The notes under the pieces are model-generated. The model had not been told where the DNA came from and made no database searches. It was given only the letters and a program-made list of their open reading frames with translations. DNA of 64,000 nt from Pseudoxanthomonas kaohsiungensis. Its GTDB lineage: Bacteria > Pseudomonadota > Gammaproteobacteria > Xanthomonadales > Xanthomonadaceae. The position numbers and the translations under genes are program-made. The stretch lies in assembly GCF_010211765.1 (NCBI RefSeq), contig NZ_PDWO01000005.1:1-64000 (forward strand), written 5' to 3'. Shown here piece after piece: positions 24,861-57,158 of the stretch (positions within the stretch are counted from its first letter, which is position 1; each line of letters opens with the position of its first letter).

Positions 24861-26039
24861 ATGAAAAGCCGCGCGCGGCTGGACGTGGCCGTGGCCGGTG
24901 GCGGCGTGGTCGGCGCGGCCTGCGCGCTGGCCCTGGCCCAGGCCGGCCTGGAGGTGGCCCTGGTCGAGCCACGGCCGGTCGCGCGCTGGCTGGCCGAGCG
25001 GCCGGACCTGCGGGTGTATGCGCTGGCGCCCGACAACGCCGGCCTGCTCGACCGCCTGGGCGTATGGCCGCAGGTCGCCGCCGCGCGGGCGCAGCCCTAC
25101 CGGCGCATGCGGGTATGGGATGCTGCCGGCGGCGGCGAGCTGGCGTTCGACGCGGCGGCGATGGCGCGCGGGGAACTGGGCTGGATCGTCGAGAACGACC
25201 TGCTGGTCGACCGCCTGTGGTCGGCGCTGGCCGCTGCCGGCGTGCAGCTGCATTGCCCGGCGAGGGTCGAGGCGATGGAGCAGGACGCGGCCGGCGTGCG
25301 CCTGAGGCTGGAAGACGGCGCGCGCCTGGATGCGCGAATCGCGGTCGCCGCCGACGGCGCCGCGTCGGACCTGCGGCGCCTGGCCGGGCTGGACATCGAC
25401 GCCCATGATTACCACCAGCGTGGCGTGGTCGCCTTCATCGAGACCGAGGCGCCGCACGAAGACACCGCCTGGCAGCGCTTCCTGCCGACCGGGCCACTGG
25501 CGCTGCTGCCGTTCGCGCAGGGGCGCAGTTCGATCGTATGGACCCTGCCCGAAGCCGATGCCGGGCGCGTGCTGGCGCTGGACGACGCGCGCTTCGCCGT
25601 CGAACTCACCGATGCCAGCGCCGCGCGCCTAGGCAAGGCGGTGCCGGCCTCCGCGCGCGTGGCCTTCCCGCTGCGCCGGCAGCTGGTCCGCCAGCAGGTG
25701 GAAGGGCGCGTGCTGGTACTGGGCGACGCGGCGCACGTGGTGCATCCGCTGGCGGGGCAGGGCGTGAACCTGGGGCTGCGCGACGTGGCCGCGTTGGCCG
25801 CCGAAATCGCCGCCGCCCGCGCACGCCGCGCCGACTGGGCCGCCCCGCATCGGCTGCAGCGCTGGGCGCGGCGACGGCAGAGCGACAACACCGTGTCGGC
25901 CTACGCTTTCGAGGGGATCAACCGGCTGTTCTCCAATGCCGATCCGCTCGCGGTACTGGCCCGCGGACCCTTGCTGGGGCTGGCCGGCAAGCTGCCGCCG
26001 CTGCAGCGCGCGCTGTGGCGGCACGCCGCCGGCGTGTAG
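24861..26039 (+). CDS. UbiH/UbiF/VisC-family FAD hydroxylase
   Basis: A 392-residue FAD monooxygenase paralogous to ubiH. It has VAVAGGGVVGAACALAL near residue 9, VAADGAASDLRRLAG near 158 and GDAAHVVHPLAGQGVNLGLRDVA near 285. The pair recalls ubiH-ubiI (visC) of enterobacteria, so it may catalyse another ring hydroxylation of ubiquinone synthesis; the exact carbon is not decidable here. GTG 24849, overlapping the ubiH stop as GTGA, is an alternative start. The stop TAG lies in GTAGGA at the head of a repeat that ends at the facing gene's stop. Confidence 0.88.
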   Translation: MKSRARLDVAVAGGGVVGAACALALAQAGLEVALVEPRPVARWLAERPDLRVYALAPDNAGLLDRLGVWPQVAAARAQPYRRMRVWDAAGGGELAFDAAAMARGELGWIVENDLLVDRLWSALAAAGVQLHCPARVEAMEQDAAGVRLRLEDGARLDARIAVAADGAASDLRRLAGLDIDAHDYHQRGVVAFIETEAPHEDTAWQRFLPTGPLALLPFAQGRSSIVWTLPEADAGRVLALDDARFAVELTDASAARLGKAVPASARVAFPLRRQLVRQQVEGRVLVLGDAAHVVHPLAGQGVNLGLRDVAALAAEIAAARARRADWAAPHRLQRWARRRQSDNTVSAYAFEGINRLFSNADPLAVLARGPLLGLAGKLPPLQRALWRHAAGV

Positions 26040-26149
26040 GAAACGGGGAGACCGGCGTCCGTGGAAAGGCGCCCGCGACGCCGCACCGTCGGCGCGGGCG
26101 GCACCCGCGCGGTTCCGACGCCCGAGTCGCCCGCAAGCCGGGCTCCTAC
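26036..26149. repeat. GTAG repeat filling a convergent gap and giving both stop codons
   Basis: The left end GTAGGA holds the TAG stop of the hydroxylase (26037-26039). The right end GCTCCTAC (26142-26149), read on the other strand as GTAGGAGC, holds the TAG stop of the EF-hand gene. The element is the entire gap between the two genes. Confidence 0.8.
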
Positions 26150-26523
26150 AGGATCCAGCCGGACAGTTCTTCGCGATCCAGGCGGCCATCCCGATTGGCG
26201 TCGACGCGGTCGAACTCGGCGCGCAGGCTCGCGTCCGACGCGGCCTCACGCCGGTCGACCGTGCCATCGCCATCGGCATCGAGCACGGTGAAGTCCAGGC
26301 GGTCGCCGCCGACCAGGCTGTCCGGTTCGACCGAGCGGATGATCACGGGCCCGCCATGGGAGCCTTCGAGCACGGTCATGCCGGTCTGCCGCTGCAGCGG
26401 TGCGTCGGCCGGGGTCGCGGCCGGCGGCGGCAGCGGCAGCGTCGTCGCCGGCGTTCCGCGCGTGGCCTGCGCTTGCAGCGAGGCCAGGAGCAGGGCGGCG
26501 GTCAACAGGGCAGTGCGGGTCAT
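26146..26523 (-). CDS. Exported EF-hand protein
   Basis: A 125-residue protein with a signal peptide (1-21, ending AQA), a Pro-rich linker to about 45 and two canonical EF-hand loops near the C-terminus: DADGDGTVDRRE (about 80) and DANRDGRLDREE (about 107). Both loops have calcium-binding residues at positions 1, 3, 5 and 12, so calcium binding in the periplasm or outside is likely. Function beyond that is unknown. Its last codons (WIL, TAG) run straight into a GTAG repeat whose TAG is the stop. Confidence 0.82.
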   Translation of the reverse strand: MTRTALLTAALLLASLQAQATRGTPATTLPLPPPAATPADAPLQRQTGMTVLEGSHGGPVIIRSVEPDSLVGGDRLDFTVLDADGDGTVDRREAASDASLRAEFDRVDANRDGRLDREELSGWIL

Positions 26524-26607
26524 GGGCGTCCGGGACAGCGCGGGATTGCCGGCAACGCTAGGGGCGGCCGGGTGAAGCGGTGTTGAACCGCTGGCGCTTG
26601 CGCGTAT

Positions 26608-26703
26608 GCAGGAACCCATCCCTGCGGGCGACCCGACGCCATCGGCACAGGCGACTCCCTCGTTCCTCCGACGCCCGTGTCGCCCATGAGGATGGGCTCC
26701 TAC
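26608..26703. repeat. GTAG-type repeat after the Gfo/Idh gene
   Basis: Ends GGGCTCCTAC at 26703; on the minus strand this is GTAGGAGCCC and its TAG is the stop of the oxidoreductase gene. The other end is degenerate (GCAGGAAC). The interior keeps GGCGACCCGACGCC and CGCCCATGAGGATG. Confidence 0.8.
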
Positions 26704-27827
26704 AGGACGATGCGCTGGCCGCCATCGCGCGCCGAGGCGTAGATCGCATCGACTACGCGCATGTCGCGCACCCCTTCCTCGCCCGGCACCAGCGGCGCGG
26801 TGCCGCGCAGGATCGCCAGCGCGTCGTCGTCCATCTGCCGTGCCTGCTGGTGCGGCACCGCGTCGGCGAAGGTCTGGCCGTCGCTGGTGCGTCCCTTCAG
26901 TCCGTCGTAGGTCTGGAACGGCGACAGCTCGTACCAGCCGCGCTCGCAATCGGCGCGCAGGGTGTTCATGTCCTCGCCGAAGCTGGTCGCGCATTCGGCG
27001 ACGCTGCCGTCGGCGAATTCCAGGGTGAAGCGCATGGTCTCGTCGACGCCGTCGAACAGCTGCGGACGTCGGACCTCCTGCCGCGCGGTCACCGCCACCG
27101 GTTCCTGGCCCTTCGTATAGCGCGCGGCGTTGAGGGAGTACACGCCCATGTCATACATCGCACCGCCGCCGTGCTGCGGCAGCCGCCGCCAGGGCTTGTG
27201 GGCCGGATCGACGTCGTCGTAGGCATTGAAGCCGGCGTCGGCGCGGATCTTGAGGATCCGGCCGTAAGGCTGCTCGCGGGCCATCGCCATCAGCCGCCGG
27301 GTGTTGGGTTCGTGCTGGAGGCGGTAGCCGATGGTCAGCTGCACCTTGTTGCGGCGGCAGGCGTCGACCATCTTCTGGCCCTCGGCCGCGTCCATCGCCA
27401 TCGGCTTCTCGCACCACACGTGCTTGCCGGCGTTGGCTGCGCGCAGGGTCAGCGGCATGTGCAGGTCGTTGGGGGTGACGATGTAGACCGCCTGGATGTC
27501 GGGGTTGTCGGCAATGCGATCGAAGTCGTCGTAGCTGTAGACGTTGCGGTCGGGGATGCCGTGCTTCTCCTGCCAGGCCGGGATCTTGTGGGGCGAGCCG
27601 GTCACGATCCCGGCCAGGTGGCAGTGCTCGGCCAGCTGCAGCCCGGGCGCGAGCTGGTGGGTGGCGTAGCCGCCGAGCCCGACCAGGGCCACGCCGACCG
27701 AATCCTTGCGCCGGGTGCGCTTGCCGTTGTTGTCCATCGCAGACTCCGCGCGCAGGGGAAGGGAGGCGCCGATGCCGGCGCCGGCCATCGCAGCCAGCAG
27801 CTGGCGGCGGGTGAACTCCAGGGTCAT
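26700..27827 (-). CDS. Tat-exported Gfo/Idh/MocA oxidoreductase
   Basis: A 375-residue NAD(P)-dependent sugar oxidoreductase. The N-terminus FTRRQLLAAMAGAGIGASLPLRA is a twin-arginine signal, so it is exported folded with its cofactor, as in Zymomonas glucose-fructose oxidoreductase. The Rossmann motif VGLGGYATHQLAPGL is near residue 47, the family lysine in HVWCEKPMAMD near 138, and the C-terminal dehydrogenase domain follows. ATG 27827 has GGAGG seven bases upstream. Divergent from an exported SMP-30/gluconolactonase-family gene. The TAG stop belongs to a GTAGGAGC repeat. Confidence 0.9.
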   Translation of the reverse strand: MTLEFTRRQLLAAMAGAGIGASLPLRAESAMDNNGKRTRRKDSVGVALVGLGGYATHQLAPGLQLAEHCHLAGIVTGSPHKIPAWQEKHGIPDRNVYSYDDFDRIADNPDIQAVYIVTPNDLHMPLTLRAANAGKHVWCEKPMAMDAAEGQKMVDACRRNKVQLTIGYRLQHEPNTRRLMAMAREQPYGRILKIRADAGFNAYDDVDPAHKPWRRLPQHGGGAMYDMGVYSLNAARYTKGQEPVAVTARQEVRRPQLFDGVDETMRFTLEFADGSVAECATSFGEDMNTLRADCERGWYELSPFQTYDGLKGRTSDGQTFADAVPHQQARQMDDDALAILRGTAPLVPGEEGVRDMRVVDAIYASARDGGQRIVL

Positions 27828-28026
27828 GCGCTTGCCTCCGTTCGCGCCCTTGGCGCCGATGCCCTTGCACCTTAGGGCGGCGGCGCTGGCTCCGCCACCC
27901 CGGCGACGGCATGCGAGGCATGCCGCGGACGAATAGCGGGCGGCTCTCTGGCACACTGGCGCGCGCATCGCCGCCGAGGACGCCGCCATCATCCGACCGA
28001 TCCCGTTCCGATACCTGGCCCTGGCC

Positions 28027-28923
28027 TTGGCCATGCCCGCGGTCGCGCCGCAGGCCGCGGCCGACCCGGCGCCCGGCGCCAGCGTGGAGGCGCTGTTCGT
28101 GGCGCGCGATTTCGTCGCCGACGGCGTGTTCTCCCGCGGCATCGAGGGGCCGGCCACCGGACCCGGCGGCGTCCTCTACGCGGTCAGTTACGGCCGCGAC
28201 GGCACCATCGGCCAGGTCCACCGGCAGGCCGATGGCAGCGGCAAGGCCTCGCTGTTCGCCACCCTGCCCGACGGCAGCACCGGCAACGGCATCCGCTTCG
28301 GCGCCGACGGCACCATGTACGTGGCCGACTACACCGGCCACAACGTGCTGGCCATCGACATGGACACGCGCCAGGCGGAGGTGTTCGCCCATCTCGGCGG
28401 CGCGTTCCAGCCCAACGACATCGCCCTGGCGCCAGACGGAGCGCTCTATGCCAGCGACCCCGACTGGGCCAACAACAGCGGCCAGCTCTGGCGCATCGGC
28501 GCGGACGGCCAGGTGCGGCGCCTGGAGGCGGACATGGGCACGACCAACGGCATCGAGGTCAGCCCGGATGGCCGCCGCCTGTACGTGAACGAAAGCGTGC
28601 AGCGCAACGTCTGGGTGTACGACATCGATGCCGCTGGCGACCTGTCCAACAAGCGCCTGCTCATCGCTTTCGCCGACCATGGCCTGGATGGCATGCGCAG
28701 TGACGTCGATGGCAACCTGTACATCGCCCGCTACGGCGCCGGGTTGGTCGCGGTGGTGTCGCCGCAGGGCGGGCTGCTGCGCGAAGTGCCGCTGCGCGGG
28801 GCCAAGCCGACCAATGTTGCCTTCGGCGGCGCTGACGGCCGTGATGTCTATGTCACCCTGCAGGACCGGGGCGCGATCGAGGTGTTCCGCAGCGACCGCC
28901 CTGGCCGGGAATACGGGCGCTGA
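28027..28923 (+). CDS. Exported SMP-30/gluconolactonase-like protein
   Basis: A six-bladed beta-propeller of about 280 mature residues. Family metal ligands appear as Glu in GIEGPATGPGG, Asn in TTNGIEVSPDG and Asp in LDGMRSDVDGNLYIA. The first standard start (TTG 28027) cuts into a signal peptide: in-frame codons back to 27988 read IIRPIPFRYLALALAMPAVAPQAAA, and an ATC at 27988 stands seven bases after GAGGA. The true start is therefore probably 27988 with a non-standard codon, or the base call is wrong. Divergent from the Tat-exported oxidoreductase; together they could oxidise a sugar and open its lactone. Confidence 0.82.
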   Translation: MAMPAVAPQAAADPAPGASVEALFVARDFVADGVFSRGIEGPATGPGGVLYAVSYGRDGTIGQVHRQADGSGKASLFATLPDGSTGNGIRFGADGTMYVADYTGHNVLAIDMDTRQAEVFAHLGGAFQPNDIALAPDGALYASDPDWANNSGQLWRIGADGQVRRLEADMGTTNGIEVSPDGRRLYVNESVQRNVWVYDIDAAGDLSNKRLLIAFADHGLDGMRSDVDGNLYIARYGAGLVAVVSPQGGLLREVPLRGAKPTNVAFGGADGRDVYVTLQDRGAIEVFRSDRPGREYGR

Positions 28924-29005
28924 CAGGCCCGGGCAGGCGGCGACCCCAGTCCCGGCCCCTGCGACTGCCACCGGCGATACTGGCGCACCGGAGGAGGCAC
29001 GACCC

Positions 29006-29722
29006 ATGCAGCAGCTCGAACTCAAGGACCCGGCGGCGTTCGCCGCGGAATTCCTGCGCCAGACCCAACTGCAGGGCTTCGGCGCCCTGAGCAAGCGCGA
29101 CCTGGAGCTGCTGGTCTACGTGCTGCTCGAGCGCGACGGCGCGATCGACCGCAATTCCAGCAACCATGCCGCCGCCTCGCTGCTGCGGATCACCCCGGCC
29201 AAGCTGCGCGCGCTGCGCAGCGACGGCTATGCACGCTGGCGCCAGCTGGTGGCCGAGCCAGCCGACGTGGCCCTGCGCCGCATCCTCGGCCATGTGCTCA
29301 CGGACGCCAACCTGCGTGCCGGCAGCCGCCACGTGAGCGAGCGCAGCCGCAAGGACGGCTTCCTGGCCGTGCGCGTGGAGCACCCGGACGACCGCCTGCA
29401 ACTGGAGCAGGCGATCCTCGATGCCGGCGCGTTGCCGGTGTACGAGCGCAACCGCGAAGTGCTCGCGGTGCGCTTCGACACGCTGGTCGCGCTGGCCGAG
29501 CGCAGCGGCTTCCTGCAGCCGGACACCGAGGCGGTGGTGAAGGCGTTGCGCAAGCTGGCACCGGCGTCGGAGGAACTGGCCGACCTGCTGGAGAAGGACG
29601 TGACGAAGCTGCGCTGGGAGGATGCGCGCAATGCACTCAACAGCCTCGGCGCCAAGGCCGTGTCGAGCACGGCCGAGGGTGGGCTGAAGAGCCTGCTGAA
29701 GCTGGCCTTCCCGTTCCTGTAG
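29006..29722 (+). CDS. Unrecognised 238-residue protein
   Basis: I do not recognise this family. The product is soluble, with no signal or membrane segment before the last residues. Residues 15-75 (ALSKRDLELLVYVLLERDG, then ASLLRITPAKLRALRSDG) look like a winged-helix or HTH-type fold. Residues 110-165 alternate strands and helices. The end, from 195, is helical and finishes in a hydrophobic KSLLKLAFPFL. GGAGGAGG lies about nine bases before the ATG, a strong ribosome site. Codon use matches neighbours. The TAG stop is inside GTAGGGCG at the head of a repeat. Confidence 0.75.
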   Translation: MQQLELKDPAAFAAEFLRQTQLQGFGALSKRDLELLVYVLLERDGAIDRNSSNHAAASLLRITPAKLRALRSDGYARWRQLVAEPADVALRRILGHVLTDANLRAGSRHVSERSRKDGFLAVRVEHPDDRLQLEQAILDAGALPVYERNREVLAVRFDTLVALAERSGFLQPDTEAVVKALRKLAPASEELADLLEKDVTKLRWEDARNALNSLGAKAVSSTAEGGLKSLLKLAFPFL

Positions 29723-29882
29723 GGCGGGGCTTGCCCCGCTGCTTCCGGCTCTCCCCGTAGAGCGGGGCTTGCCCCGCTGCTTGCGATCGTCGGCAAAGGC
29801 AGCGGGGCAAGCCCCGCTCCACGAAGGGTGCCGAAGGGGAGTGGGCGAGCCCGGATCCTCGTGCGGCCAGCGTGCGCCCTAC
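29719..29882. repeat. GTAGGGCG/GTAGAGCG repeat cluster filling a convergent gap
   Basis: GTAGGGCGGGGCTTGCCCCG at 29719, GTAGAGCGGGGCTTGCCCCG at 29757 and an inverted copy at 29800-29822. Each has a CGGGGC-TT-GCCCCG hairpin. The left GTAG contains the stop of the unrecognised gene; the right end CTAC (29879-29882) contains the rlmM stop. Confidence 0.85.
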
Positions 29883-30934
29883 TTCGCCAGGGTGGCGAAG
29901 ACCGTGATTTCCTCGCGGTCGTGGTAGAGCTGCTTCGCACGCACCGTGAGCGGCTTTCCGGCCTGCTCTTCGAACAGGTCGAGGCACAGCCGGGTTTCCT
30001 GCCAGCGCTTCTTCATCGGCAGCTTCAGGTTGAACACCGCATGCCGGCACCAGCCTTCGGCGAACCACTTCGCCATGCGCGCGGCGACCTTGGCCGGCTG
30101 TTCGACCATGTCGCACACCATCCAGTCCAGCGGTTTGGCCGGATGCCAGTGGAAGCCGTCCGCGCGCAGGTGCTCCACCAGGCCGGTGTCGAGTACGTGC
30201 TGGCGCAGCGGTCCATTGTCGACCGAGGTCACCCGCAGGTGCTGGCGGGTCAGCACCCAGGTCCAGCCGCCGGGCGCAGCGCCCAGGTCGGCGGCGGTCA
30301 TGCCCGGGCGCAGCAGGCGGTCGCGCTCGTCGGCGGTCAGCAGGGACAGGAGCGCTTCTTCCAGCTTCAGCGCCGAGCGCGACGGCGCCTCGGGCAGCAG
30401 CTTCAGGCGCGGGATGCCCAGCGGCCAGGGCGCGCTGTCGCGCGGGTCGGCCAGCGCCAGCAGCGCGTGGTCGCCGGCCAGGAAGCAGACATGCAGGCGT
30501 GGCAGGCGCGCGTCTTCCTTCGCCGCCAACATTCCGGCTTTGCGCAGCGCCGGGCGCAGTGCATTGCCGAAGCTGCGCGCCAGCCCCGACAGCGGCTTGC
30601 CGGCATCCGAATCCGGATGCTCGACCCACAGGTCGCCAAAGCGCACGCCCCCGGGCATCGTCGCCAGCAAGGGTGTGAGCCGGTCGGTGGGATCCATGCC
30701 GCGCAGTTCGGCGAACAGGCGCAGCTTCTGCCGGGCGAAGACGATGCCGCGAAAGGGAAGGGCACGCGCCAGCGTCTGCGCGTCGGCTTCCTCGCCGGTG
30801 ACGAAAACCACGTAGCCGTCGTCGCGGCTGGCGCGTGCATAGCCGGCGATCCCGGCCAGCGCGGCACGCTCGCCCAGTTCGGCGGCCAGTTCCGGCTCGA
30901 AACCCTGGCGGCAGTAGCCGAGCAGTCCGTGCAT
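29879..30934 (-). CDS. rlmM: 23S rRNA C2498 2'-O-ribose methyltransferase
   Basis: A 351-residue SAM-dependent methyltransferase. The N-terminal RNA-binding (THUMP-like) part spans 1-190; the catalytic domain shows SAM motif I AADLGAAPGGWTWVL near 213, DWMVCDMVEQP near 270 and FNLKLPMKKRW near 302, fitting the Lys-Asp-Lys-Glu tetrad of RlmM. It modifies C2498 of 23S rRNA before ribosome assembly. Last gene of a probable unit glnS, deaminase, rlmM with gaps of 11 and 17 bases. Stop is AAG TAG inside GTAGGGCG. Confidence 0.93.
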   Translation of the reverse strand: MHGLLGYCRQGFEPELAAELGERAALAGIAGYARASRDDGYVVFVTGEEADAQTLARALPFRGIVFARQKLRLFAELRGMDPTDRLTPLLATMPGGVRFGDLWVEHPDSDAGKPLSGLARSFGNALRPALRKAGMLAAKEDARLPRLHVCFLAGDHALLALADPRDSAPWPLGIPRLKLLPEAPSRSALKLEEALLSLLTADERDRLLRPGMTAADLGAAPGGWTWVLTRQHLRVTSVDNGPLRQHVLDTGLVEHLRADGFHWHPAKPLDWMVCDMVEQPAKVAARMAKWFAEGWCRHAVFNLKLPMKKRWQETRLCLDLFEEQAGKPLTVRAKQLYHDREEITVFATLAK

Positions 30935-30951
30935 GGATGGGCTGGCGGCGC

Positions 30952-31512
30952 TCAGTAGCGCTCGCCGCCGCCTTCGCCGTAGGCGCGCAGCACCGCGCGC
31001 GCCTCGCTGCGCAGCAGGTCGCGCTGCACGGCGATGCCGCGGCGCTCCAGCTCGCCGATCCAGTCCGCCGGCAGCGGGCCTTCGTCGAATTCGGTCAGCT
31101 CCATCACGTCCTCGGCGCGCGCGCCGATCAGCAGCCGGTCGATGCCGGCCCAGATCGTGGCGCCGTAGCACTGGCAGCAGGGCTGGGACGAGGTGGCCAG
31201 CGCGACCGGCGACAGCACGTCGTTCAGGCGCGGGGTCTGCAGGCGCTGCTGGGCCAGCATGTAGGCCATGTTCTCGGCGTGCGCCAGCGAGGTGGTATGC
31301 GGCATCACCCGGTTCACGCCGGCGGCGACCACCCGGTCATCCGGGCCGAACACCACCGCGCCGAACGGCCCGCCGCTGCGCGCCTCGACATTGCGCCGCG
31401 ACAGCTCGATCGCCAGCGCGACCTTGTCCTCGTCGGAGGCGAAGGTCGCGCCCGGTTCGATCGCCTCGTGGATCCAGGCCGGCAGGGTGAGGTGGACCTG
31501 TGCGTACAGCAT
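30952..31512 (-). CDS. Cytidine/deoxycytidylate-type nucleoside deaminase
   Basis: A 186-residue zinc deaminase. The catalytic HAE motif is in [10 protein letters not shown] near residue 75 and the zinc cysteines in [11 protein letters not shown] near 110 (PCxxC). The GGPFGAVVF stretch near 48 is typical of the guanine deaminase/tRNA-adenosine deaminase clan. The arrangement favours a guanine- or other purine-base deaminase; the exact base is unresolved. It lies 11 bases after glnS and 17 before rlmM on the same strand. Confidence 0.88.
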
Positions 31513-31523
31513 GGCGGTCGTAC

Positions 31524-33284
<1,761 letters not shown>

Positions 33285-33759: not shown

Positions 33760-33770
33760 CGGAGCTCGCG

Positions 33771-34424
33771 ATGACCCTGGGATCGATGCTGGGCGTTGGC
33801 GCCTGGAAACAGCGCCTGCCTCGCGACGCCGACCTGCTGCCCGGCCGCGACCAGCCGTTGCCGCTGCACAACATTCATCACGTCAGCGGCCGGCCCTTGC
33901 AAGGGGAGTTCGCCGGGATGGAGGTGGTGGATGTCGGCCTGGGCTGCTTCTGGGGCGCCGAACGCAAGTTCTGGAACCTGCCGGGCGTGTACACCACCGC
34001 GGTCGGCTATGCCGGCGGCGGCACCCCGAACCCCACCTACGAGGAAGTGTGCTCCGGGCAGACCGGGCATGCCGAGGTGGTGCGCGTGGTCTACGACCCG
34101 GCGCAGGTGGACTTCACCACGGTCCTGAAGACCTTCTGGGAAAGCCACGACCCCACCCAGGGCATGCGCCAGGGTAACGACGTGGGCACCCAGTACCGCT
34201 CGGCGATCTACTGCCGCACGCAGGCCCAGTACGAGGCGGCGCTGGCCAGCCGCGACGTCTACCAGGCTTCGCTGGAGGCCTCGGGCTATCCGCCGATCAC
34301 CACCGAGATCGCCTACCCGGCGCCGGCGTTCTACTACGCCGAGGATTACCACCAGCAGTACCTGTCGAAGAATCCGAACGGCTACTGCGGGCTCGGTGGA
34401 ACCGGGGTGTCCTGCGCGTTGTAG
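33771..34424 (+). CDS. msrA: Peptide methionine-(S)-sulfoxide reductase
   Basis: A 217-residue repair enzyme that reduces methionine-S-sulfoxide. The catalytic cysteine is in [13 protein letters not shown] near residue 58; a substrate pocket block [18 protein letters not shown] follows, and C-terminal cysteines in [13 protein letters not shown] serve as resolving residues. The first 48 residues are an N-terminal extension found in longer MsrA forms. GGAG lies six bases before ATG 33771. The stop (TTG TAG) is the TAG of a GTAGGAGC repeat. Confidence 0.95.
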
Positions 34425-34601
34425 GAGCCCATCCACATGGGCGACACCGACGCCGCGGGAACAGGCGACGTCCCCGCGGCCCCGACGTCGTCCGGCCGTG
34501 TAGGAGCCGATCCTCGTCGACGACCCGACGAGACCCGCCGGCATGCCCATGATGCTGATCGTCCGACCACCTCGGTGTCGCCCATGAGGATGGGCTCCTA
34601 C
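34421..34601. repeat. Double GTAGGAGC repeat filling the msrA convergent gap
   Basis: Left head GTAGGAGCCC at 34421 supplies the msrA stop. A second head, GTAGGAGCCGAT, lies at 34500. The right end GGGCTCCTAC at 34601 supplies the stop of the facing gene. Interior pieces CATGGGCGACACCGACG and TCGCCCATGAGGATG recur in other copies. Confidence 0.88.
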
Positions 34602-35242: not shown

Positions 35243-35256
35243 CGGGCGCCCCGGCG

Positions 35257-36413: not shown

Positions 36414-36492
36414 AGCGCTGCCTAAGCGAGGTGCCGATGTGTTAGGTTTCGCTGCCTTTTCGCGCTCACCGACCACGCCACCGAATCCCCAC

Positions 36493-51100: not shown

Positions 51101-51693
51101 GCGCCGCGGTGGCCATCGACCAGGTGGTCGGCAACCGCGAAATCGTGGTCAAGCCGGTCGGCCTGCAGATCTCCTCGGTCCCGGGCATCTACGGCGCGAC
51201 CATCACCGGCGACGGCCACGTGGTGGTGATCCTCGACGTCGCGCCGCTGGTACGCCGCCACCTGGCCCAGCCGGAGCGTCCGGCCGCGGTCGAGCCGCAG
51301 CAGGCGCGCCACGTGCCGCTGGTCATGGTGGTCGACGATTCGCTGACCATGCGCAAGGTCACCGGCCGCGTGCTGGAGCGCCACAACTTCGAGGTGGTCG
51401 TCGCCCGCGACGGCATCGAAGCGCTGGAGCGCCTGGAGGAGCGCGTGCCCGACCTGATGCTGCTGGACATCGAGATGCCGCGCATGGACGGCTACGAGCT
51501 GGCCACCGCCATGCGCGCGGACGACCGCTTCCGCGGCGTGCCGATCGTGATGATCACGTCGCGTACCGGCGAGAAGCATCGCCAGCGCGCGTTCGAGATC
51601 GGCGTGCAGCGCTACCTCGGCAAGCCGTACCAGGAACTGGACCTGATGCGAAACGTGTACGACCTGCTGGGGATCGCCCGTGTCCGTGGCTGA
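45175..51693 (+). CDS. chpA: Multi-HPt chemosensory histidine kinase ChpA (PilL)
   Basis: A 2172-residue hybrid kinase. Domains in order: an N-terminal HPt-like/FimL-like region with HQVQGTLRM (His52); a FimL-like part to about 560; an acidic Ala/Glu/Asp linker; HPt with HTLKGSGR (His869); HPt-like HTMNGAF (His1022); a second long acidic linker (1155-1370); HPt HTLKGGAR (His1421); dimerisation (VRADLLDNLVNHAGEVAIYR, 1573); ATPase with HMLRNSVAHGLE (1760) and GRGVGMDVV; a CheW domain; a receiver with Asp2098 in LMLLDIEMPRMDGYE. It phosphorylates PilG and PilH. Fourteen bases overlap the CheB-like gene. Confidence 0.94.
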   Translation: MSALRDAMSHAVLGWVKPELDETLRQARNEVEAFAEDPADTSRMRFCAGYLHQVQGTLRMVELYAPAMVAEEMELLAQAVQQGAASDRDEACATLMRGTVLLPDYLERLQNGHRDIPIVLLPLLNDIRAARGAAVLSESVLFAPDLSGPLPDQVPEASPLPWTQRQDRVASAQARLDQALAAWPEQAAPADPAALASAAADLLENARHETTRRMLWVLSSAATALRDGALAASDALRGAFAGIARAVRQAHEDEAAPSNAQGVASQEPTRQLLYLIAQARATHPALDALRDAFDLEVHAPSEAELDHARGSLAGRNRDLLNTVGGVVKEELLRVKDALDLHLRTGGDAASLQPQTAELANVADTLGMLGLGVARDVVLQQRQALDAIARGEQPASESALLDIAGALLYVDASLDDQVARLGAGEEGEDAAAAEARRTVEVLAHEAIANFAAAREHFVAFIETNWDHERLKDVPQLLSEVSGALRILDLPQPADYLEGVRRYIATELLQRRRVPSGRQLDTLADAMASLEYYLEALRDRRPNREEILEIARSSLESLHYWPLPEEADAEVEAAAAPAVAVAAVGLAPAPAAVAATFSSWDPVAAENDEAAAPLADDADATGPAAVPEREVLEAPALDIEMPAVEVAAIAEPPAVDNAQWISFDPVAAELDSGAVGDAGHSQAAAAAPSTAAAPQADAIGGVEVSAVDEGAASAAGSTAAEEAVAAGATPEAVPALPDDLPQVSPVAGTDTWLDLSMKVQPDVRPAQVYESRISRIELDADSTSLIAEISAAAAGLDAVASPAVPAPAIASLQLVEVIGGFDDTQDIDADIREVFLEEFEEERANLQRMVPHWGQAPEELERLRPIRRVFHTLKGSGRLVGARALGEFSWKIEGMLNRVLDGTRVPGPAVLAMVQQACDVLPQFDAALRGEGSVTADLYAMEAVADRIAAGEDVFYTPATAPSAAPAAEPVPVVEEGTPASVDSVLREILEAEVASHLETVDAWIASARQAPEPASEALLRAIHTMNGAFAMTDVPEITGVTDAAETFVKRSLAASRVPDAEAVDALAAMADAIRGCIRALQAESPRIPRFTALAERLRTLSESLPEARWPQVAEPEAEALQDTLPQAGVELTSVEDLAAYLDQAPADVPMPADADAGRVAAASGVFAAASAAAVVGSDAADRAEVVAAQEADQPVEDFDLEAVGEVAADAPEADVAAGSDATDAGDESVDAAFVDVEAVDAEAATGNLSEAHASEAEGEPAGVPAMEADAADQTEAELEAEFEVFEMDMGAAEAIDAGAADASGAAAAAADDGAPMGIADEEAVAATAPAADADVASAEAEATVAAVVAMPALGAPLPEFRSEEEAVADGPMLDFNELDRDLVDIFVEEGVDILDHVDGLIQELRQDPSSREAIIGLQRDLHTLKGGARMAGIASIGDLGHVIESLLEAVAEHRTELQRGDIQLLERGFDALHRLLQHTRVHRATDIPQALIDEFEARIRGEAVAVPGESAEASYVAALATPPATADVPEPKGAPAIAEAAEPEPVRMHVPLSAPVEDEAAVATDEGAPRAPQEQVRVRADLLDNLVNHAGEVAIYRSRLEQQLGAFRSAMAELDRTNARLRDQLRRLDLETEAQIVARYQREQDSADPTFDPLELDRFSTLQQLSRGLAESAADLTGLQGVLDDLARQYDVLLQQQSRVSSELQDGLMSARMVPFDSIVPRLRRVVRQAAHDTRKQVQLRLDGTHGELDRNVLDRMVAPLEHMLRNSVAHGLESPKDRRGNGKDEEGTITIALRREGSEIVLQVADDGRGLDRAAIRRRAEQRNLIKPGAELTDAELDSVIFESGFSTSEKVSQLAGRGVGMDVVRNEVRQLGGTVEIDSVAGKGVTFTLRLPQTLAVTQAVFVQIGETTFAVPVASVSGIGRISRERFEAGGGVYRYAGEEYALHDLGLLVGQGAAKAEGQAQVPLLLVRAGDLRAAVAIDQVVGNREIVVKPVGLQISSVPGIYGATITGDGHVVVILDVAPLVRRHLAQPERPAAVEPQQARHVPLVMVVDDSLTMRKVTGRVLERHNFEVVVARDGIEALERLEERVPDLMLLDIEMPRMDGYELATAMRADDRFRGVPIVMITSRTGEKHRQRAFEIGVQRYLGKPYQELDLMRNVYDLLGIARVRG

Positions 51694-52858
51694 CGCACGC
51701 AAGCCGGTGGCGCTGCTCGCCCGCGCCGGTGCCGCGCGCGACCGCCTGCGCGAAGCGCTGGATGCGGCGGGCGCCCAGGTGGTGCTCGAGGAAGATCCGA
51801 CCGTGCTCGACGCCGGTACCCTGGCCGCGGCCGGGCCGCAGGCGGTGCTGGTCGCGCTGGAGCCGGCGGTCGAAGACGCCCTGGTCGCCCTGGAGCCCGT
51901 GCTGGAGTCGCCCGGCCTGCTGGTCGTGTTCGACGAGGCCGACCTGGCCGCGCGTCGTGATGGCTGGGAAGCGCAGCGCTGGATCCGCCACCTGGCGGCC
52001 AAGCTGCACGGCCACGACGACGTGCTCCCGCCCGGCCGCGAGCAGGACCTGGTGATCGACCTGCAGCCCGGTGCCCCGGCAACGCCGGCCCAGCTGCACG
52101 CCGAGGATCCGTTCGATACCCACCTGGCCGAAGCCGCCGCGCGCGCCGAGGCGCTGCCGGAGGACCGCCCCGGCGAGAACCTGCCCGAACCGGCCATCGC
52201 CGCGCCGTCGCCGTTGGCCTGGTCGCTGAGCGACGATGCCGCGGCGCCGGCGTTCGAGCGCGCCGGGCGCGAACCGCCCCCGCTGCCGGACTTCTCGCGC
52301 CTCGAACTCGTGGCGCTGGAGCCGGAAGGGACCGACGATATCGTCAAGGGTGCGGTCCTGGTGATCGCCGGCATCGGCGGCCCGGATGCGGTACGCAAGC
52401 TGATCGGCGCGCTCCCGGCCGGGTTCACCCGGCCCCTGCTGGTCCAGCTCAAGCTTGACGGCGGGCGTTACGACAACCTGGTCAAGCAGCTGGCGCGCGT
52501 ATCGGCGCTGCCGGTGGCCATGGCCATGCCGGGCGACGCCGTCTCCGCGGCGACCGTCTACGTGCTGCCCCAGGCGGTCGGAATCGAAGCCAGCGACGAG
52601 GGCCTGGCCTTCACCGACGGCGACAGCGAGCTGGTCGCGTCGTTGCCGCCGGCCGAGAGCGCGGTCATCGTGCTCAGCGGCGCGGACCCGGCACGGATCG
52701 ATGCCGTGCTGGCGCTGGCCACCCGCGGTGGCCATGTCGCCGGGCAGTCGCTGGAAGGCTGCTACGACGCATCGGCGGTGAAACTGATGGCGGCCGGTGG
52801 TGCCGAGCTCGGCGCCCCGGCGCAGCTGGCCGAACAGCTGGCCGCGCGCTGGTCCTGA
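51680..52858 (+). CDS. CheB-like protein with lost catalytic residues (ChpB position)
   Basis: A 392-residue protein at the place of chpB. Residues 1-110 resemble a degenerate receiver (VALLARAGAARDRLREAL) without the acidic pocket. Residues 235-390 follow the CheB methylesterase fold (VLVIAGIGGPDAVRKLIGALP, then LLVQLKLDG, then VIVLSGADPARIDAVLALA), but the Ser of GASTGG, the His of QHM and the Asp of GMGxDG are all absent. It is probably catalytically dead and may act as an adaptor. GTG 51680 overlaps chpA by 14 bases; a CheW gene follows after 30. Confidence 0.82.
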   Translation: MSVADARKPVALLARAGAARDRLREALDAAGAQVVLEEDPTVLDAGTLAAAGPQAVLVALEPAVEDALVALEPVLESPGLLVVFDEADLAARRDGWEAQRWIRHLAAKLHGHDDVLPPGREQDLVIDLQPGAPATPAQLHAEDPFDTHLAEAAARAEALPEDRPGENLPEPAIAAPSPLAWSLSDDAAAPAFERAGREPPPLPDFSRLELVALEPEGTDDIVKGAVLVIAGIGGPDAVRKLIGALPAGFTRPLLVQLKLDGGRYDNLVKQLARVSALPVAMAMPGDAVSAATVYVLPQAVGIEASDEGLAFTDGDSELVASLPPAESAVIVLSGADPARIDAVLALATRGGHVAGQSLEGCYDASAVKLMAAGGAELGAPAQLAEQLAARWS

Positions 52859-52888
52859 GCCGGCAGACCGTTCGAGGACGAAGGACAG

Positions 52889-53359
52889 ATGGCCTATAAC
52901 AGCGACGAAATCCGCGGTGTCATGATCCAGGTGGGCCAAGAGCGCCTGCTCCTGCCCAATGCGACGGTGGCCGAAGTGCTGGCGCGCGTGGCGATCGAGC
53001 CGGTGGAGGGTGCGCCGGCGTGGCTGCCGGGGCAGATCGTCTGGCACGGGTGGAACGTGCCCCTGGTGGCGTTTTCGCGCCTGGCCGGGCTGGGCGAGGA
53101 GCCGGCGATGCGCAACAACCGCGTGATCGTGCTCAAGGGCCTGGGCAAGGACGAGACCCTGCCGTACTTCGCCCTGCTGACGGCCTCGTTCCCGCAGCTG
53201 GTCTCGGTGCCGCGCGACAGCCTGCTGGCCGACGCGTCGGAGGAAGACCTGCCGCGCGGGGTGCAGATGCGCGTCCTGCTCGGCGACCAGAGCGCCCTGC
53301 TGCCGGACCTGGAAGGCGTGGAGCGCATGATCGGCGAGGCGATGGCCGCCGCGGCCTGA
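52889..53359 (+). CDS. chpC: CheW-like protein, ChpC position
   Basis: A 156-residue single CheW domain: GVMIQVGQERLLLPNATVAEVL from residue 10 (first 20 residues suffice to see it), PAWLPGQIVWHGWNVPLVAF near 43, VIVLKGLGKDETLPYFALL near 79. In Pseudomonas ChpC links further receptors to ChpA. It is the last gene of the pilGHIJ-chpA operon, 30 bases after the CheB-like gene. ChpD and ChpE homologues are not present after it. Confidence 0.87.
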   Translation: MAYNSDEIRGVMIQVGQERLLLPNATVAEVLARVAIEPVEGAPAWLPGQIVWHGWNVPLVAFSRLAGLGEEPAMRNNRVIVLKGLGKDETLPYFALLTASFPQLVSVPRDSLLADASEEDLPRGVQMRVLLGDQSALLPDLEGVERMIGEAMAAAA

Positions 53360-53456
53360 GGCCGAGCCGGCGTCGCCGCCCGGACCGGCCGGCGCGTCGC
53401 GCCGTTCCAAAAAAAACCGCCCCGCGGCCTGTCCCGCTGCCAAAGCCGGACCCTGC

Positions 53457-53543
53457 GTAGAGCGGGGCTCGCCCCGCTGCTACTGGGACGGCGGGACTCG
53501 TGGCCAGCGACGGCGGAAGAGCAGCGGGGCGAGTCCGCCCTAC
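53457..53543. repeat. GTAGAGCG/GTAGGGCG repeat pair after rsmE
   Basis: GTAGAGCGGGGCTCGCCCCG at 53457 and an inverted partner ending CTAC at 53543. The right end holds the rsmE stop (minus strand CTG TAG in GTAGGGCG). An A run at 53409-53416, read as T on the minus strand after a short GC stem, may end rsmE transcripts. The remaining 53360-53456 holds nothing else recognisable. Confidence 0.82.
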
Positions 53544-54268
53544 AGGTCGCCGAAGCGTGCCTGCAGGGCGGCAATGGCAGCCAGGCCCGCAGTTTCGGTA
53601 CGTAGCACCCGTGGCCCCAGTCGCAGTCCGTTGAAGCCGGCCGCCTGCAGGATGGTGCGGTCGCGCGGCGACCAGCCGCCCTCCGGGCCGATCGCGATCC
53701 ACACGTTCCCGCCTGCCGGCGAGTGCAGGCTCTCCAGCCGGTGTTCGCCTTGCGGATCGAGTACCAGGCGCAGGCCTTCGCCGTCGATCGCGCGCGCGGC
53801 CGCATCCAGCGTCGCCGGCGCTCCCAGCGCCGGCACCCGCGCCCGCCCGGACTGCTCGCACGCCGACTCGAGCACGCTGCGCCAGTGGGCCAGGCGCTTT
53901 CCGGCGCGTTCGGCATCCAGCCGCACCTCGGTGCGGTCGCCCGAGACCGGGACGACGGCGGCCACGCCCAGTTCGGTGGCCTTCTGCAGGATCAGGTCCA
54001 TCTTCTCGCCGCGCGCGATGCCCTGGAGCAGGACGATCCGCAACGGCGACTCGTTGGCGACCGGCTCGCGCGCCAGCACTTCCACGCGTGCCTCGCGCTT
54101 GCCGATGGCGGCCAGCCGAGCCGGGTAGTCGTGGCCGTCGCCGTTGAACAGCACGCAGGCATCGCCTTCGCGCAGCCGCAACACGCGCACCAGGTGGTTG
54201 GCCGCGCGCTCGGGCAGCGCCAGGTCGGCGCCGACCTGCAGGGGCAGGTCGACATGGCAGCGGGTCAC
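53540..54268 (-). CDS. rsmE: 16S rRNA U1498 N3-methyltransferase
   Basis: A 242-residue SPOUT-class methyltransferase. The N-terminal PUA-like domain (AANHLVRVLRLREGDACVLF) leads to the knotted SAM site with KMDLILQKATELGVAAVVPV near 90, WRSVLESACEQSGRARVP near 130, IAIGPEGGWSPRD near 192 and LGPRVLRTETAGLAAIAAL near 218. It modifies U1498 in 16S rRNA. GTG 54268 overlaps the bioA stop (GTGA); another GTG six bases upstream is possible. The TAG stop is part of a GTAGGGCG repeat. Confidence 0.94.
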   Translation of the reverse strand: MTRCHVDLPLQVGADLALPERAANHLVRVLRLREGDACVLFNGDGHDYPARLAAIGKREARVEVLAREPVANESPLRIVLLQGIARGEKMDLILQKATELGVAAVVPVSGDRTEVRLDAERAGKRLAHWRSVLESACEQSGRARVPALGAPATLDAAARAIDGEGLRLVLDPQGEHRLESLHSPAGGNVWIAIGPEGGWSPRDRTILQAAGFNGLRLGPRVLRTETAGLAAIAALQARFGDL

Positions 54269-55656
54269 GCGCACGCGGTGGCCTCCTCGATGGCCTCGGC
54301 CGTGACCGAGGCGAGCAGTTGCAGCTGCGCGTCGTCGACGCAGTACGGCGGCATCCAGTACAGGATGTCGCCCAGCGGGCGCAGCAGCACGCCGCGCGCC
54401 AGCGCCGCACGGTAGGCGCGCAGGCCGACGCGCGAGGCGGCGGGGAACGGCGTGGCGCGGTCGCCGTCGCGGGTCAGCTCGAACGCCACGACCATGCCTG
54501 CCTGGCGCACGTCGGCGACATGGCGGTGCGTGGACAGCGGCGCGGCCAGGGACGCCATCGCCGCGGCCGTGGCGCGGTTGCGTTCCAGCACGCCATCGCT
54601 TTCGAAGATATCCAGGGATGCCATCGCCGCCGCGCAGGCCAGCGGGTTGCCGGTGTAGCTGTGCGAGTGGAGGAACGCGCGCTCGCGCGAATCGTCGAGG
54701 AAGCCGTCGTACAGCGATTGCGTGGCCAGCACCGCGGCCAGCGGCAGGAAGCCACCGGTCAGGCCCTTGGACAGGCACATCAGGTCGGGCGAGATACCGG
54801 CCTGTTCGCAGGCGAACAGGGTGCCGGTGCGGCCGAATCCGGTGGCGATCTCGTCGGCGATCAGGAACGCCCCGTTGGCATCGCACAGCTCGCGCGCCCG
54901 GCGCAGGTAGGCCGGATCGTGCATGCGCATGCCGCCGGCGCACTGCAGCCTTGGTTCCAGGATCACGGCGCAGATCTCGCCAGGGTGGCGGTCGAACAGG
55001 TCGGCCAGCGCGTCGGCGGCCTGCGCGGCGCGCTGCGCCGGGGACTGGCCGGGCGTGGCGAGGTAGGCGTCGGGCGAGGGCGCGAACAGGGCCTGCGCCA
55101 GCAGCGGCGCATAGATGCGCCGGTACAGCGGGATGTCGCCGACCGCCAGCGCGCCCAACGTCTCGCCGTGGTAGCCGTTCTCGAGGGCGACGAACTTGGT
55201 GCGACCCGGCTCGCCACGGTTGCGGAACCAGTGGAATGCCATCTTCAGCGCCACCTCCACGCCGGCGGAGCCGTTGTCGGCGTAGAACACTTTCGCCAGC
55301 GGGGCGCGGCCCGCCTGTCGCGGCGCGAGCGCCAGGAGCCGCTCGGCCAGCTCCACCGCCGGCGCATGCGAAAAGCCGGCCAGGATCACCTGTTCCAGGG
55401 TGCCGGCCTGGCGCGCGATGGCGGCGGCGATGCGCGGCTCGGCGTGCCCGTGCAGGTTGGTCCACCAGCTGCTGACGCCGTCGAGGTAGCGGCGTCCGTC
55501 GTAACCGTGCAGCCAGGCGCCAGCGCCGCGCTCGATGGGCACCAGCGGCAGGACGTCGGGGTGCTCGCGCATCTGCGTGCAGGGGTGCCAGAGCACGGCC
55601 AGGTCGCGTTCCCGCCACCGTGCGCCGGCCTGTTCGGTCGCCGGGTCTGCTAGCAT
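54265..55656 (-). CDS. bioA: Adenosylmethionine-8-amino-7-oxononanoate aminotransferase
   Basis: A 463-residue class III PLP aminotransferase making diaminopelargonic acid for biotin. Conserved parts: LWHPCTQMREH near residue 22, DGVSSWWTNLHGHAEPRI near 60, FYADNGSAGVEVALKMAF, GYHGETLGALAVGD, EIATGFGRTGTLFA near 250 and the PLP lysine in LSKGLTGGFLPLA near 281. ATG 55656 leaves the usual short lead before WHP; ATG 55683 adds nine residues. Overlaps rsmE and is divergent from nudE. Confidence 0.94.
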   Translation of the reverse strand: MLADPATEQAGARWRERDLAVLWHPCTQMREHPDVLPLVPIERGAGAWLHGYDGRRYLDGVSSWWTNLHGHAEPRIAAAIARQAGTLEQVILAGFSHAPAVELAERLLALAPRQAGRAPLAKVFYADNGSAGVEVALKMAFHWFRNRGEPGRTKFVALENGYHGETLGALAVGDIPLYRRIYAPLLAQALFAPSPDAYLATPGQSPAQRAAQAADALADLFDRHPGEICAVILEPRLQCAGGMRMHDPAYLRRARELCDANGAFLIADEIATGFGRTGTLFACEQAGISPDLMCLSKGLTGGFLPLAAVLATQSLYDGFLDDSRERAFLHSHSYTGNPLACAAAMASLDIFESDGVLERNRATAAAMASLAAPLSTHRHVADVRQAGMVVAFELTRDGDRATPFPAASRVGLRAYRAALARGVLLRPLGDILYWMPPYCVDDAQLQLLASVTAEAIEEATACA

Positions 55657-55730
55657 TCGCGGCTCATGATCACGTTCGTGCATCCCGCCATGATATCGGC
55701 CGCGCCGCGGCCGCGCCGCGGGTACTTGCC

Positions 55731-56276
55731 GTGAGCCGTCGCCTCCCGGTCATCCACGGGACCGCCGCCCAGGACGTCGGACCATACCGGCTCGAACGCC
55801 TGGACCTGGAGTTCGGCAACGGCGAGCGCCGGCGCTTCGAGCGCATGGTCAGCCGCGGCCACGGCGCGGTGGTGGTGGTGCCCATGCTGGACGATGGGAC
55901 CGTGTTGCTGGTGCGCGAATACGCGGCCGGCGTGCACCGCTACGAACTGGGGCTGGTCAAGGGCCGCATCGATGCCGGCGAGACGCCGGAACAGGCGGCC
56001 GACCGCGAGCTGAAGGAGGAGGCGGGCTACGGCGCCCGCCGGCTCGACGTGCTGCGCGGCATGACCCTTGCGCCGACCTACATGAGCCATGTCTCCTGGC
56101 TGGTGGTGGCACGCGACCTCTATCCCGAGAAGCTTCCCGGCGACGAGCCGGAGGAGCTCGAAGTCATTCCCTGGAAATTGCAGGATCTGGAACAGCTGAT
56201 GTTGCGAGATGATTTTTCCGAAGGCCGGTCGCTGGCCGCCCTGTTCATCGCCCGCGCCTGGCTGGCCGCACGATGA
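55731..56276 (+). CDS. nudE: ADP-compound NUDIX hydrolase, NudE type
   Basis: A 181-residue hydrolase for ADP-ribose-like and NADH-like compounds. The NUDIX box GRIDAGETPEQAADRELKEE begins near residue 84 and is preceded by YELGLVKG, the NudE form. GTG 55731 is used because frames upstream are Ala/Arg-rich. The end overlaps cysQ in an ATGA junction, the same nudE-cysQ pairing seen in other gammaproteobacteria. Confidence 0.92.
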   Translation: MSRRLPVIHGTAAQDVGPYRLERLDLEFGNGERRRFERMVSRGHGAVVVVPMLDDGTVLLVREYAAGVHRYELGLVKGRIDAGETPEQAADRELKEEAGYGARRLDVLRGMTLAPTYMSHVSWLVVARDLYPEKLPGDEPEELEVIPWKLQDLEQLMLRDDFSEGRSLAALFIARAWLAAR

Positions 56277-57073
56277 TCAGGATCACCGCCGACCTGCGCG
56301 AGACCGTGATCGCGATCGCCCGCCAGGCGGGCGCGGCGATCATGGAGATCTACGCCGGAAGCTTCGACGTCGCCCACAAGGACGACGCCAGCCCGCTCAC
56401 CGCCGCCGACCTGGCCGCGCACCGGATCATCGTCGAGGGATTGGAGCGGCTGACGCCCGACCTGCCGGTGCTGTCGGAGGAATCGGCCGACATTCCCTGG
56501 GCGACCCGCCAGCACTGGTCCAGCTACTGGCTGGTCGATCCGCTCGACGGCACCCGCGAGTTCGTCAAGCGCAACGGCGAGTTCACCGTCAACATCGCCC
56601 TGGTCCACCAGGGCGCGCCTGCGATGGGCGTGGTGCAGGCGCCGGTCGGTGGCCAGGTCTGGCATGCCGTGCGTGGCGAACTGGCCTATCGCCGCGACGG
56701 CCATCGCGACAGCGTGCTGCGTGCCCGCGCACCGGCGACCGCGCCGCTGCGGGTGGCGGCCAGCCGTTCGCACCGGGACGCCCGCACCCAGGCGGTGCTC
56801 GACCGGATGGGGCCGATCGAAGAGGTTGCGCTGGGTTCGTCGTTGAAGTTCTGCCGGATCGCCGAAGGCGGACTCGACGTCTACCCGCGCTTCGGCCCGA
56901 CCTCGGAGTGGGACACCGCCGCGGCGCAATGCGTGCTGCATGCGGCCGGAGGCGCGCTGCTTGCCGCCGATACCGGCAAGCCGTTCCGCTACAACCGGCG
57001 CGAGTCGCTGCTCAACGGCGACTTCATCGCGCTGGGCGACCCGGACCTGCCCTGGCGCGACTGGCTGTTGTAG
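56273..57073 (+). CDS. cysQ: 3'(2'),5'-bisphosphate nucleotidase CysQ
   Basis: A 266-residue magnesium-dependent phosphatase that recycles PAP from sulfate assimilation. Motifs: LSEESADIPW near residue 65, the metal site YWLVDPLDGTREFVKRNGEF near 84, and the C-terminal signature SEWDTAAAQCVLHAAGG near 210. Normal length. It follows nudE by overlap. The stop (TTG TAG) is the TAG of a GTAGGAGCCGAT repeat. Confidence 0.95.
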   Translation: MIRITADLRETVIAIARQAGAAIMEIYAGSFDVAHKDDASPLTAADLAAHRIIVEGLERLTPDLPVLSEESADIPWATRQHWSSYWLVDPLDGTREFVKRNGEFTVNIALVHQGAPAMGVVQAPVGGQVWHAVRGELAYRRDGHRDSVLRARAPATAPLRVAASRSHRDARTQAVLDRMGPIEEVALGSSLKFCRIAEGGLDVYPRFGPTSEWDTAAAQCVLHAAGGALLAADTGKPFRYNRRESLLNGDFIALGDPDLPWRDWLL

Positions 57074-57158
57074 GAGCCGATTCATCGGCGACCCGACGCC
57101 GCCGCTCCAAGTGAGGCCCCATCCCCCGACGCCCGCGTCGCCGTCCGATGGGCTCCTC
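57070..57158. repeat. GTAGGAGC repeat giving the cysQ stop
   Basis: Begins GTAGGAGCCGATTCATCGGC at the cysQ stop and fades at GATGGGCTCCTCC, where the usual TAC end is lost. Interior GGCGACCCGACGCC matches copies at 16059 and 16182. Confidence 0.82.

What the first reader, a model, noticed from the sequence alone, without database searches (positions are those of the whole stretch)
26036..57158. GTAG repeats supply the stop codon of nine genes
Nine genes end on a TAG that is part of GTAGG(A/G) at a repeat head: 26039, 26146, 26700, 29722, 29879, 34424, 34598, 53540 and 57073 (first or last stop base by strand). Only about 13 of some 57 complete genes use TAG at all, so 9 of 13 sit at these heads. 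The codon before always ends in G. Known: GTAG is the REP foot recognised by RAYT (IS200/IS605-like) transposases, and GTAG-headed REPs abound in Stenotrophomonas. Inference: host NNG-TAG gene ends may serve as the GTAG landing site, giving harmless insertions in fixed orientation. I do not know whether this has been described.
Basis: partly seen in the sequence, partly recalled or inferred. Interest (0 to 1): 0.78.

Follow-up and report, generated by a model that had tools for sequence, protein, structure and literature searches.

The report
Repeat ends double as stop codons
In this bacterium many genes stop exactly on the first letters of a small mobile palindrome (a REP element); the overlap was already noted in print in 2013, and here it proves far beyond chance, with the repeat often replacing the gene's last codon and stop rather than landing on a stop that was already there.

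Summary
In detail: nine genes end on the TAG of GTAGG, 9 of 13 TAG stops among 57 called genes. Eight look like REP heads; 29879 does not. In 644 kb of the genome, 24 of 114 GTAGGAGC heads and 11 of 82 GTAG(A/G)GC(C/G)GGG heads are gene stops, against 0.38 and 0.36 expected from random placement in the same gaps. The repeats are GTAG REPs/REPINs; two RAYT genes are present, each ending on the TAG of the REP behind it. Di Nocera et al. 2013 already state that GTAG REP termini 'often provide' the TAG stop to flanking ORFs.

The landing-site idea is only partly borne out. Of 31 repeat-ended genes with repeat-free orthologues in six relatives, 6 have a relative with the same codon plus TAG and no repeat; 9 have no TAG in any repeat-free relative. 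The last residue is conserved in 34 of 82 same-length pairs, controls 125 of 165; residue -3 is normal. TAG is enriched in repeat-free orthologues (31% against 9%), but NNG-TAG and NNH-TAG about equally, which does not fit a GTAG target.

The parts
26036..26149 (.). Repeat between two convergent genes; GTAG at 26036-26039 (+) and CTAC at 26146-26149 (-) give both stops; the left head is a diverged copy of the GTAGG..GGGGAGACCGG sub-family
26610..26703 (-). REPIN (approximate far end); head at 26700-26703 gives the stop of the - strand gene 26700-27827 (CTG TAG GAGCCCATCCTCATGGGC)
   Evidence: CTG-TAG without repeat in relatives G003 and G012
29719..29882 (.). Family B repeats (GTAGGGCGGGGC head at 29719-29722, GTAGAGCGGGGC at 29757) between convergent genes; the right end GTAGGGCGCACGC at 29879-29882 is a stop but not a clear REP
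34421..34601 (.). Family A repeats between the MsrA-like gene and a convergent gene, both ending on terminal GTAG/CTAC; an extra GTAGGAGC head lies inside at about 34500
53457..53543 (.). Family B-like REPIN; head variant GTAGGGCGGACTCGCCCCGC at 53540-53543 (-) gives the stop of gene 53540-54274
57070..57158 (+). Family A REP (GTAGGAGCCGATTCATCGGC) with a degenerate inverted partner; gives the stop of gene 56273-57073, one codon later than in most relatives
16059..16274 (.). Family A repeats not at any stop, the ordinary intergenic kind, for comparison

Best explanation
The repeats are GTAG REP/REPIN elements, presumably spread by the cell's own RAYT transposases. Their outward head acts as a ready-made stop: in family A it is mostly (C/T)TG-TAG, a codon plus stop; in family B the bases before GTAG at gene ends look mostly like the host's, so there the repeat brings little more than the stop. 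When a REPIN comes to lie at the very end of a gene in the one frame of three in which TAG is read, the gene ends there at nearly the old length. Copies that are read through in the other frames are almost absent near gene ends and are presumably purged. Once the repeat supplies the stop, losing its GTAG would extend the protein, so such copies may be kept while ordinary intergenic copies turn over (stop capture). A stop that was already NNG-TAG may be entered the same way at a minority of loci. Shown: identity of the repeats, the RAYTs, the d=0 excess, replacement of the last codon, near-unchanged length, scarcity of read-through copies. Inferred: insertion by RAYT, purging, and retention.
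For: Two RAYT genes (NF047646, 127.5 and 127.7 bits; match to TnpArep 4er8) lie among repeats of the two families, and each ends on the TAG of the REP behind it. d=0 excess 24+11 against about 0.7 expected. In G000 no strict head lies in a same-strand gene near its 3' end; the 3 same-strand copies inside a gene are all far inside one mutase-like gene, in a frame without stop. Last residue overwritten, residue -3 normal. Same length in 56 of 100 (A) and 26 of 36 (B) repeat-free orthologue pairs. 9 of 31 genes: no TAG in any repeat-free relative. Repeat at the stop of the orthologue too in 21 of 165 pairs against 1 of 213 control pairs, with hairpins that differ between species, as expected if stop-bearing sites last.
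Against: Random insertion plus purging predicts a spread of lengths, yet unchanged length is the mode; either targeting or long retention is needed and I could not separate them. TAG is about three times as common in repeat-free orthologues as in controls, which delivery by the repeat alone does not predict. Stop-site copies are not clearly more decayed than others: 16 of 24 against 60 of 75 with intact hairpin, p 0.27. Repeat-bearing gaps are shared between species in general (G000/G011: 9 of 15 against 11 of 100), so sharing is not special to stops. One head in G011 lies 7 nt before a stop, out of frame, so read-through copies are not wholly absent. No empty site was seen cleanly: even the closest pair (93.6% DNA identity) has rewritten gaps.
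Confidence: 0.5

Rival explanations
1. Landing site: RAYT inserts 3' of a pre-existing GTAG, so native NNG-TAG gene ends are preferred harmless targets.
For: 6 of 31 genes have a repeat-free, same-length relative with the same codon plus TAG; TAG 0.312 [0.22-0.41] in repeat-free orthologues against 0.093 [0.045-0.15] in controls and 0.469 for native-TAG genes; in ortholog groups, TAG in repeat-poor relatives goes with a repeat at the stop in repeat-rich ones (7 of 18 against 2 of 28, p 0.018); explains unchanged length; family B at stops lacks its usual preceding C.
Against: H-TAG is as enriched as G-TAG; last codon not conserved; 9 of 31 genes with no TAG in repeat-free relatives. In published work GTAG is held to be the element's own guide or recognition motif and cleavage occurs at CT (or CA) dinucleotides (PMC8266576, passages).
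Confidence: 0.2
2. Plain accident with a filter: REPINs insert anywhere in non-essential DNA; only those causing no long C-terminal extension survive, no retention or targeting.
For: Almost no read-through copies near gene ends; other repeats sit harmlessly 6-80 nt after stops.
Against: About 0.3 family A heads per position downstream (15 in d 1-50) against 24 at the one position d=0; 35 observed against about 0.7 under random placement; lengths mostly unchanged.
Confidence: 0.1
3. Function at the stop: a hairpin directly after the stop is selected, for example to slow ribosomes or protect the mRNA end.
For: In E. coli REPs fewer than 16 nt after a stop lower translation (reported in PMC12306157, passages). 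Repeats recur at some orthologous stops with different hairpins.
Against: Does not explain why the stop is inside the repeat rather than a few bases before it; no copies at d=1-9 in family A. No expression data.
Confidence: 0.15

Closest known systems
GTAG REPs of Di Nocera, De Gregorio and Rocco 2013 (PMC3733652)
   Same: GTAG-headed palindromes, often paired, downstream of genes; the paper states that GTAG REP termini often provide the TAG stop codon to flanking ORFs, and that some REPs lie inside genes (passages seen)
   Different: The passages seen give no counts, null model or orthologue comparison for the stop overlap; Pseudoxanthomonas was not named in them
REPIN/RAYT systems (Nunvar 2010 PMC2817692; Bertels and Rainey 2011 PMC3116915; passages seen)
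   Same: RAYT gene flanked by inverted cognate REPs, REPs close to or immediately after the RAYT stop codon, REPs as inverted doublets
   Different: Here both RAYT genes with nearby REPs actually end on the TAG of the REP behind them
Stenotrophomonas REPs (Nunvar 2013 PMC3686654, passages)
   Same: GTAG head, same family of bacteria, classes differ between relatives at orthologous RAYT genes
   Different: Different hairpins; stop overlap not mentioned (a word beginning with 'stop' has 0 occurrences in that text)
E. coli REPs within 15 nt of a stop codon (passages of PMC12306157)
   Same: REP next to a stop codon
   Different: There the REP lies after the stop and is linked to ribosome stalling; here the stop is part of the repeat

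Membership tests
GTAG REP / REPIN | GTAG directly 5' of a short palindrome | tested here: met
   83 of 87 family A hairpins in the 644 kb sample carry GTAG; four window copies fold as single strands, -5.6 to -7.3 kcal/mol, z -1.66 to -2.54
GTAG REP / REPIN | High copy number | tested here: met
   In 644 kb: GTAGGAGCCCAT 51, GTAGGAGCCGAT 37, GTAGAGCGGGGC 54 copies. The bare 8-mer GTAGGAGC (207+197 in the genome) does not exceed its reversed control (202+217), so it proves nothing alone
GTAG REP / REPIN | Inverted doublets | tested here: met
   Outward GTAG/CTAC pairs, for example 88 nt between the two stops at L047 19370/19459
GTAG REP / REPIN | Cognate RAYT flanked by the same REPs | tested here: met
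   L002 and L003; the REP at the L002 stop is a variant, GTAGGGGGCCGGTTCACCGGCGAC, amid strict family A copies
GTAG REP / REPIN | Mobility by RAYT | not testable with these tools
   No near-identical strains; closest pair 93.6% identical
RAYT | REP-associated tyrosine transposase family | tested here: met
   NF047646 above cut-off for L002 and L003 (127.5 and 127.7 bits, cut-off 80); L001 60.4 bits, below cut-off
GTAG landing-site model | Repeat-free orthologues end in NNG-TAG specifically | tested here: not met
   G-TAG 23, H-TAG 19 against control 10 and 9; TGA 84; 6 of 31 genes compatible with the strict form. A second test by ortholog group was too small: 6 of 13 against 1 of 5

The most novel reading that the evidence does not exclude
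Gene ends are long-lived capture sites for REPINs: once a repeat supplies the stop it cannot easily be lost, so the same stop codons keep a repeat over species divergence while each species' RAYT rewrites the hairpin. This gives selfish repeats a durable, nearly harmless niche and makes them authors of C-terminal codons and stop-codon usage.
Probability: 0.3. Interest if true: 0.6.

Novelty: new member of a known kind. Interest (0 to 1): 0.38.

Why it matters
REP repeats are widespread small DNA repeats of bacteria, and how they spread and persist is unsettled (PMC8266576 calls their dissemination mechanisms poorly understood, abstract in the listing). A sharp, frame-exact overlap with stop codons, tied to replacement of the last codon, gives a countable mark for where they insert and which copies last. 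It also warns that in such genomes much of TAG usage (35 of 96 TAG stops in the sample) reflects repeats, not codon preference.

Tried and rejected
Empty-site comparison with the closest pair found (G012/G003): of 35 gaps differing by 30 nt or more, the 11 that held repeat patterns were aligned, but they are too rewritten to show a clean insertion point. Stop-site repeats being older by hairpin decay: not significant (16/24 against 60/75 intact, p 0.27). A prospective G-TAG against H-TAG test in ortholog groups was too small (6 of 13 against 1 of 5, p 0.60), though TAG against no TAG gave p 0.018. A simple NT|GTAG target at native codons fits only part of the cases: 12 of 31 genes share the first two bases of the last codon with a same-length repeat-free relative. 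Other genera around one locus (54 loci in four groups, out of the 80 fetched) gave too few intergenic heads to test (d=0: 1 of 25 in Stenotrophomonas, 3 of 24 in Xanthomonas, no heads in the other two groups; the 10-mers used there are mostly not REPs). My first gene finder was wrong (antisense genes) and was replaced. Paper searches on a prior statement of the overlap; it was found in PMC3733652. Three repeat-ended genes of the 35 had no orthologue found and drop out of the orthologue counts; one more had no repeat-free orthologue.
Full report
What was checked. A codon-usage gene finder trained on the window finds 57 genes, 13 with TAG, 9 of these at the named places. Eight belong to recognisable repeats; the ninth (29879) lies at the edge of the 29719-29882 repeat block but shows no hairpin of its own by eye.

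What the repeats are. Family A heads read mostly (C/T)TGTAGGAGCC(C/G)AT...AT(C/G)GGCGAC; family B heads read mostly CGTAGAGCGGGGCTTGCCCCGCTGC; a third, rarer one reads GTAGGAGCCGGGGAGACCGG. They form inverted pairs with GTAG facing outwards. The genome has three Y1 transposase matches; two are RAYTs over the NCBIfam cut-off and match TnpArep, 4er8. The L002 RAYT lies among family A repeats and the L003 RAYT among family B and related GTAGAGC repeats, and both genes end on the TAG of the REP behind them; the one behind the L002 gene is a variant, GTAGGGGGCC. Named records at the same locus place the window in or next to Pseudoxanthomonas.

Is it more than chance. In 644 kb of the window's genome there are 114 family A and 82 family B heads by pattern. 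24 and 11 are stops (d=0); 8 of the 24 lack the intact family A hairpin. No other distance from -30 to 80 holds more than 2 (A) or 4 (B) heads, and none is negative. Random re-placement in the same gaps gives 0.38 and 0.36. Relatives show it too, unevenly, for family A: G011 4 of 71, G004 6 of 25, G002 1 of 18, G013 3 of 4; family B in G004 0 of 4; G011 also has one head 7 nt before a stop, out of frame. 23 of the 35 genes have a convergent neighbour, against 182 of 526 genes with a non-negative gap; at least two convergent pairs are flush on both ends of one repeat block (L047 19370/19459; window 34424/34598).

Where the TAG comes from. For 29 repeat-ended genes outside the window I searched orthologues in six same-genus genomes (26 of the 29 gave at least one) and added the six window genes with strict heads from the syntenic regions; 32 genes gave 165 orthologue pairs: TGA 84, TAA 10, NNG-TAG 23, NNH-TAG 19, repeat at the stop 21, near-repeat 8. 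Controls, 85 genes of the same genome ending in TGA or TAA with a gap of at least 40 nt, gave 213 pairs: TGA 178, TAA 14, NNG-TAG 10, NNH-TAG 9, repeat 1, near-repeat 1. Gene-mean TAG in repeat-free orthologues is 0.312 (95% 0.22-0.41) against 0.093 (0.045-0.15); for genes with native TAG and no repeat it is 0.469, 17 genes. Taken alone this favours a TAG that was there first. But the excess is equal for NNG-TAG and NNH-TAG, so it is no mark of a GTAG target. It fits a class of genes tolerant of TAG, or relics of earlier repeats. For the window genes, TAG in orthologues from the wider family varies by gene: 9 of 23 for 26700 (all NNG-TAG), 1 of 29 for 29722.

What the repeat overwrites. Among same-length repeat-free pairs the last residue is the same in 22 of 56 (A) and 12 of 26 (B) against 125 of 165 in controls; the penultimate in 32 of 56, 24 of 26 and 127 of 165; residue -3 in 50 of 56, 22 of 26 and 148 of 165. 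Length is unchanged in 56 of 100 and 26 of 36 repeat-free pairs, against 165 of 211 in controls. So the repeat replaces the stop, often the last codon, in A at times also the one before, and little else. In family A the new last codon is mostly CTG or TTG; T also precedes GTAG in 60 of 71 copies away from stops. In family B a C precedes GTAG in 64 of the 68 copies tabulated away from stops but in only 4 of 11 at stops, so there the bases before GTAG seem to be the host's. By gene: 6 of 31 compatible with strict landing, 9 of 31 with no TAG in any repeat-free relative, the rest mixed.

Sites recur. The same stop at times carries a repeat in another species, but with that species' own hairpin (L047|20, L050|10, L053|4). 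Repeat-bearing gaps are shared in general, not only at stops (9 of 15 against 11 of 100 for G000/G011; among convergent gaps alone 3 of 6 against 4 of 11), so this may reflect tolerant gaps.

Reading. A REPIN offers an outward TAG. Placed at a gene end in the right frame it is a nearly silent replacement of the stop and often of the last codon; in the wrong frame it would extend the protein, and such copies are almost absent near gene ends. The exactness needs something more than random insertion: either preference for gene ends, or long retention because the gene now depends on the repeat's stop. I favour retention, at 0.5 for the explanation as a whole, and could not separate the two without near-identical strains.

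Prior knowledge. Di Nocera et al. [quoted passage not shown] The finding's core is therefore published; the null model, the last-codon replacement and the G-TAG/H-TAG comparison I did not see in the passages read of the papers named here, none of which I read whole. TnpArep cleavage at CT (or CA), with GTAG as the likely guide, is from PMC8266576 (passages).

Limits. Gene calls are mine, not curated. Most stretches were chosen where repeats were known. The six relatives have median protein identities of 85-89% to the window's genome. The strict patterns leave 26039, 29879 and 53540 out of the orthologue statistics.

Noticed in passing
L051:11799-15818 (G000 C11:41799-45818): A 1339-aa fused methylmalonyl-CoA-mutase-like gene (B12-binding, MeaB and mutase domains) holds three REPINs inside its reading frame, read GTA-GGA-GCC-CAT (V-G-A-H) so that TAG is out of frame; the hairpin (CCCATCTCATGGG) is one base shorter than the usual CCCATCNTCATGGG. 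The best match in G011 is 1257 aa, and its alignment lacks several of the repeat-encoded stretches.
   Followed up: partly
L002:1378-1854 and L003:1378-1827: Both RAYT genes end on the TAG of the REP behind them; in L003 the convergent neighbour (674-1309) does so too.
   Followed up: partly
G000_L047 19366-19462 (G000 C7, about 39.4 kb): One REPIN fills the whole gap between two convergent genes, each ending on its terminal GTAG; in relative G003 the gap is a short inverted repeat between two TGA stops.
   Followed up: partly
G012 C1 and G003 C1, 200 kb each (L342-L361): Between these two 93.6% identical genomes the gaps that hold repeats are largely rewritten, while most of the remaining DNA aligns well.
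   Followed up: partly
L001:127-831: A third Y1 transposase-like gene, 60.4 bits against a RAYT cut-off of 80, near a contig end and with no clear REP flanks in the 2.3 kb seen.
   Followed up: no
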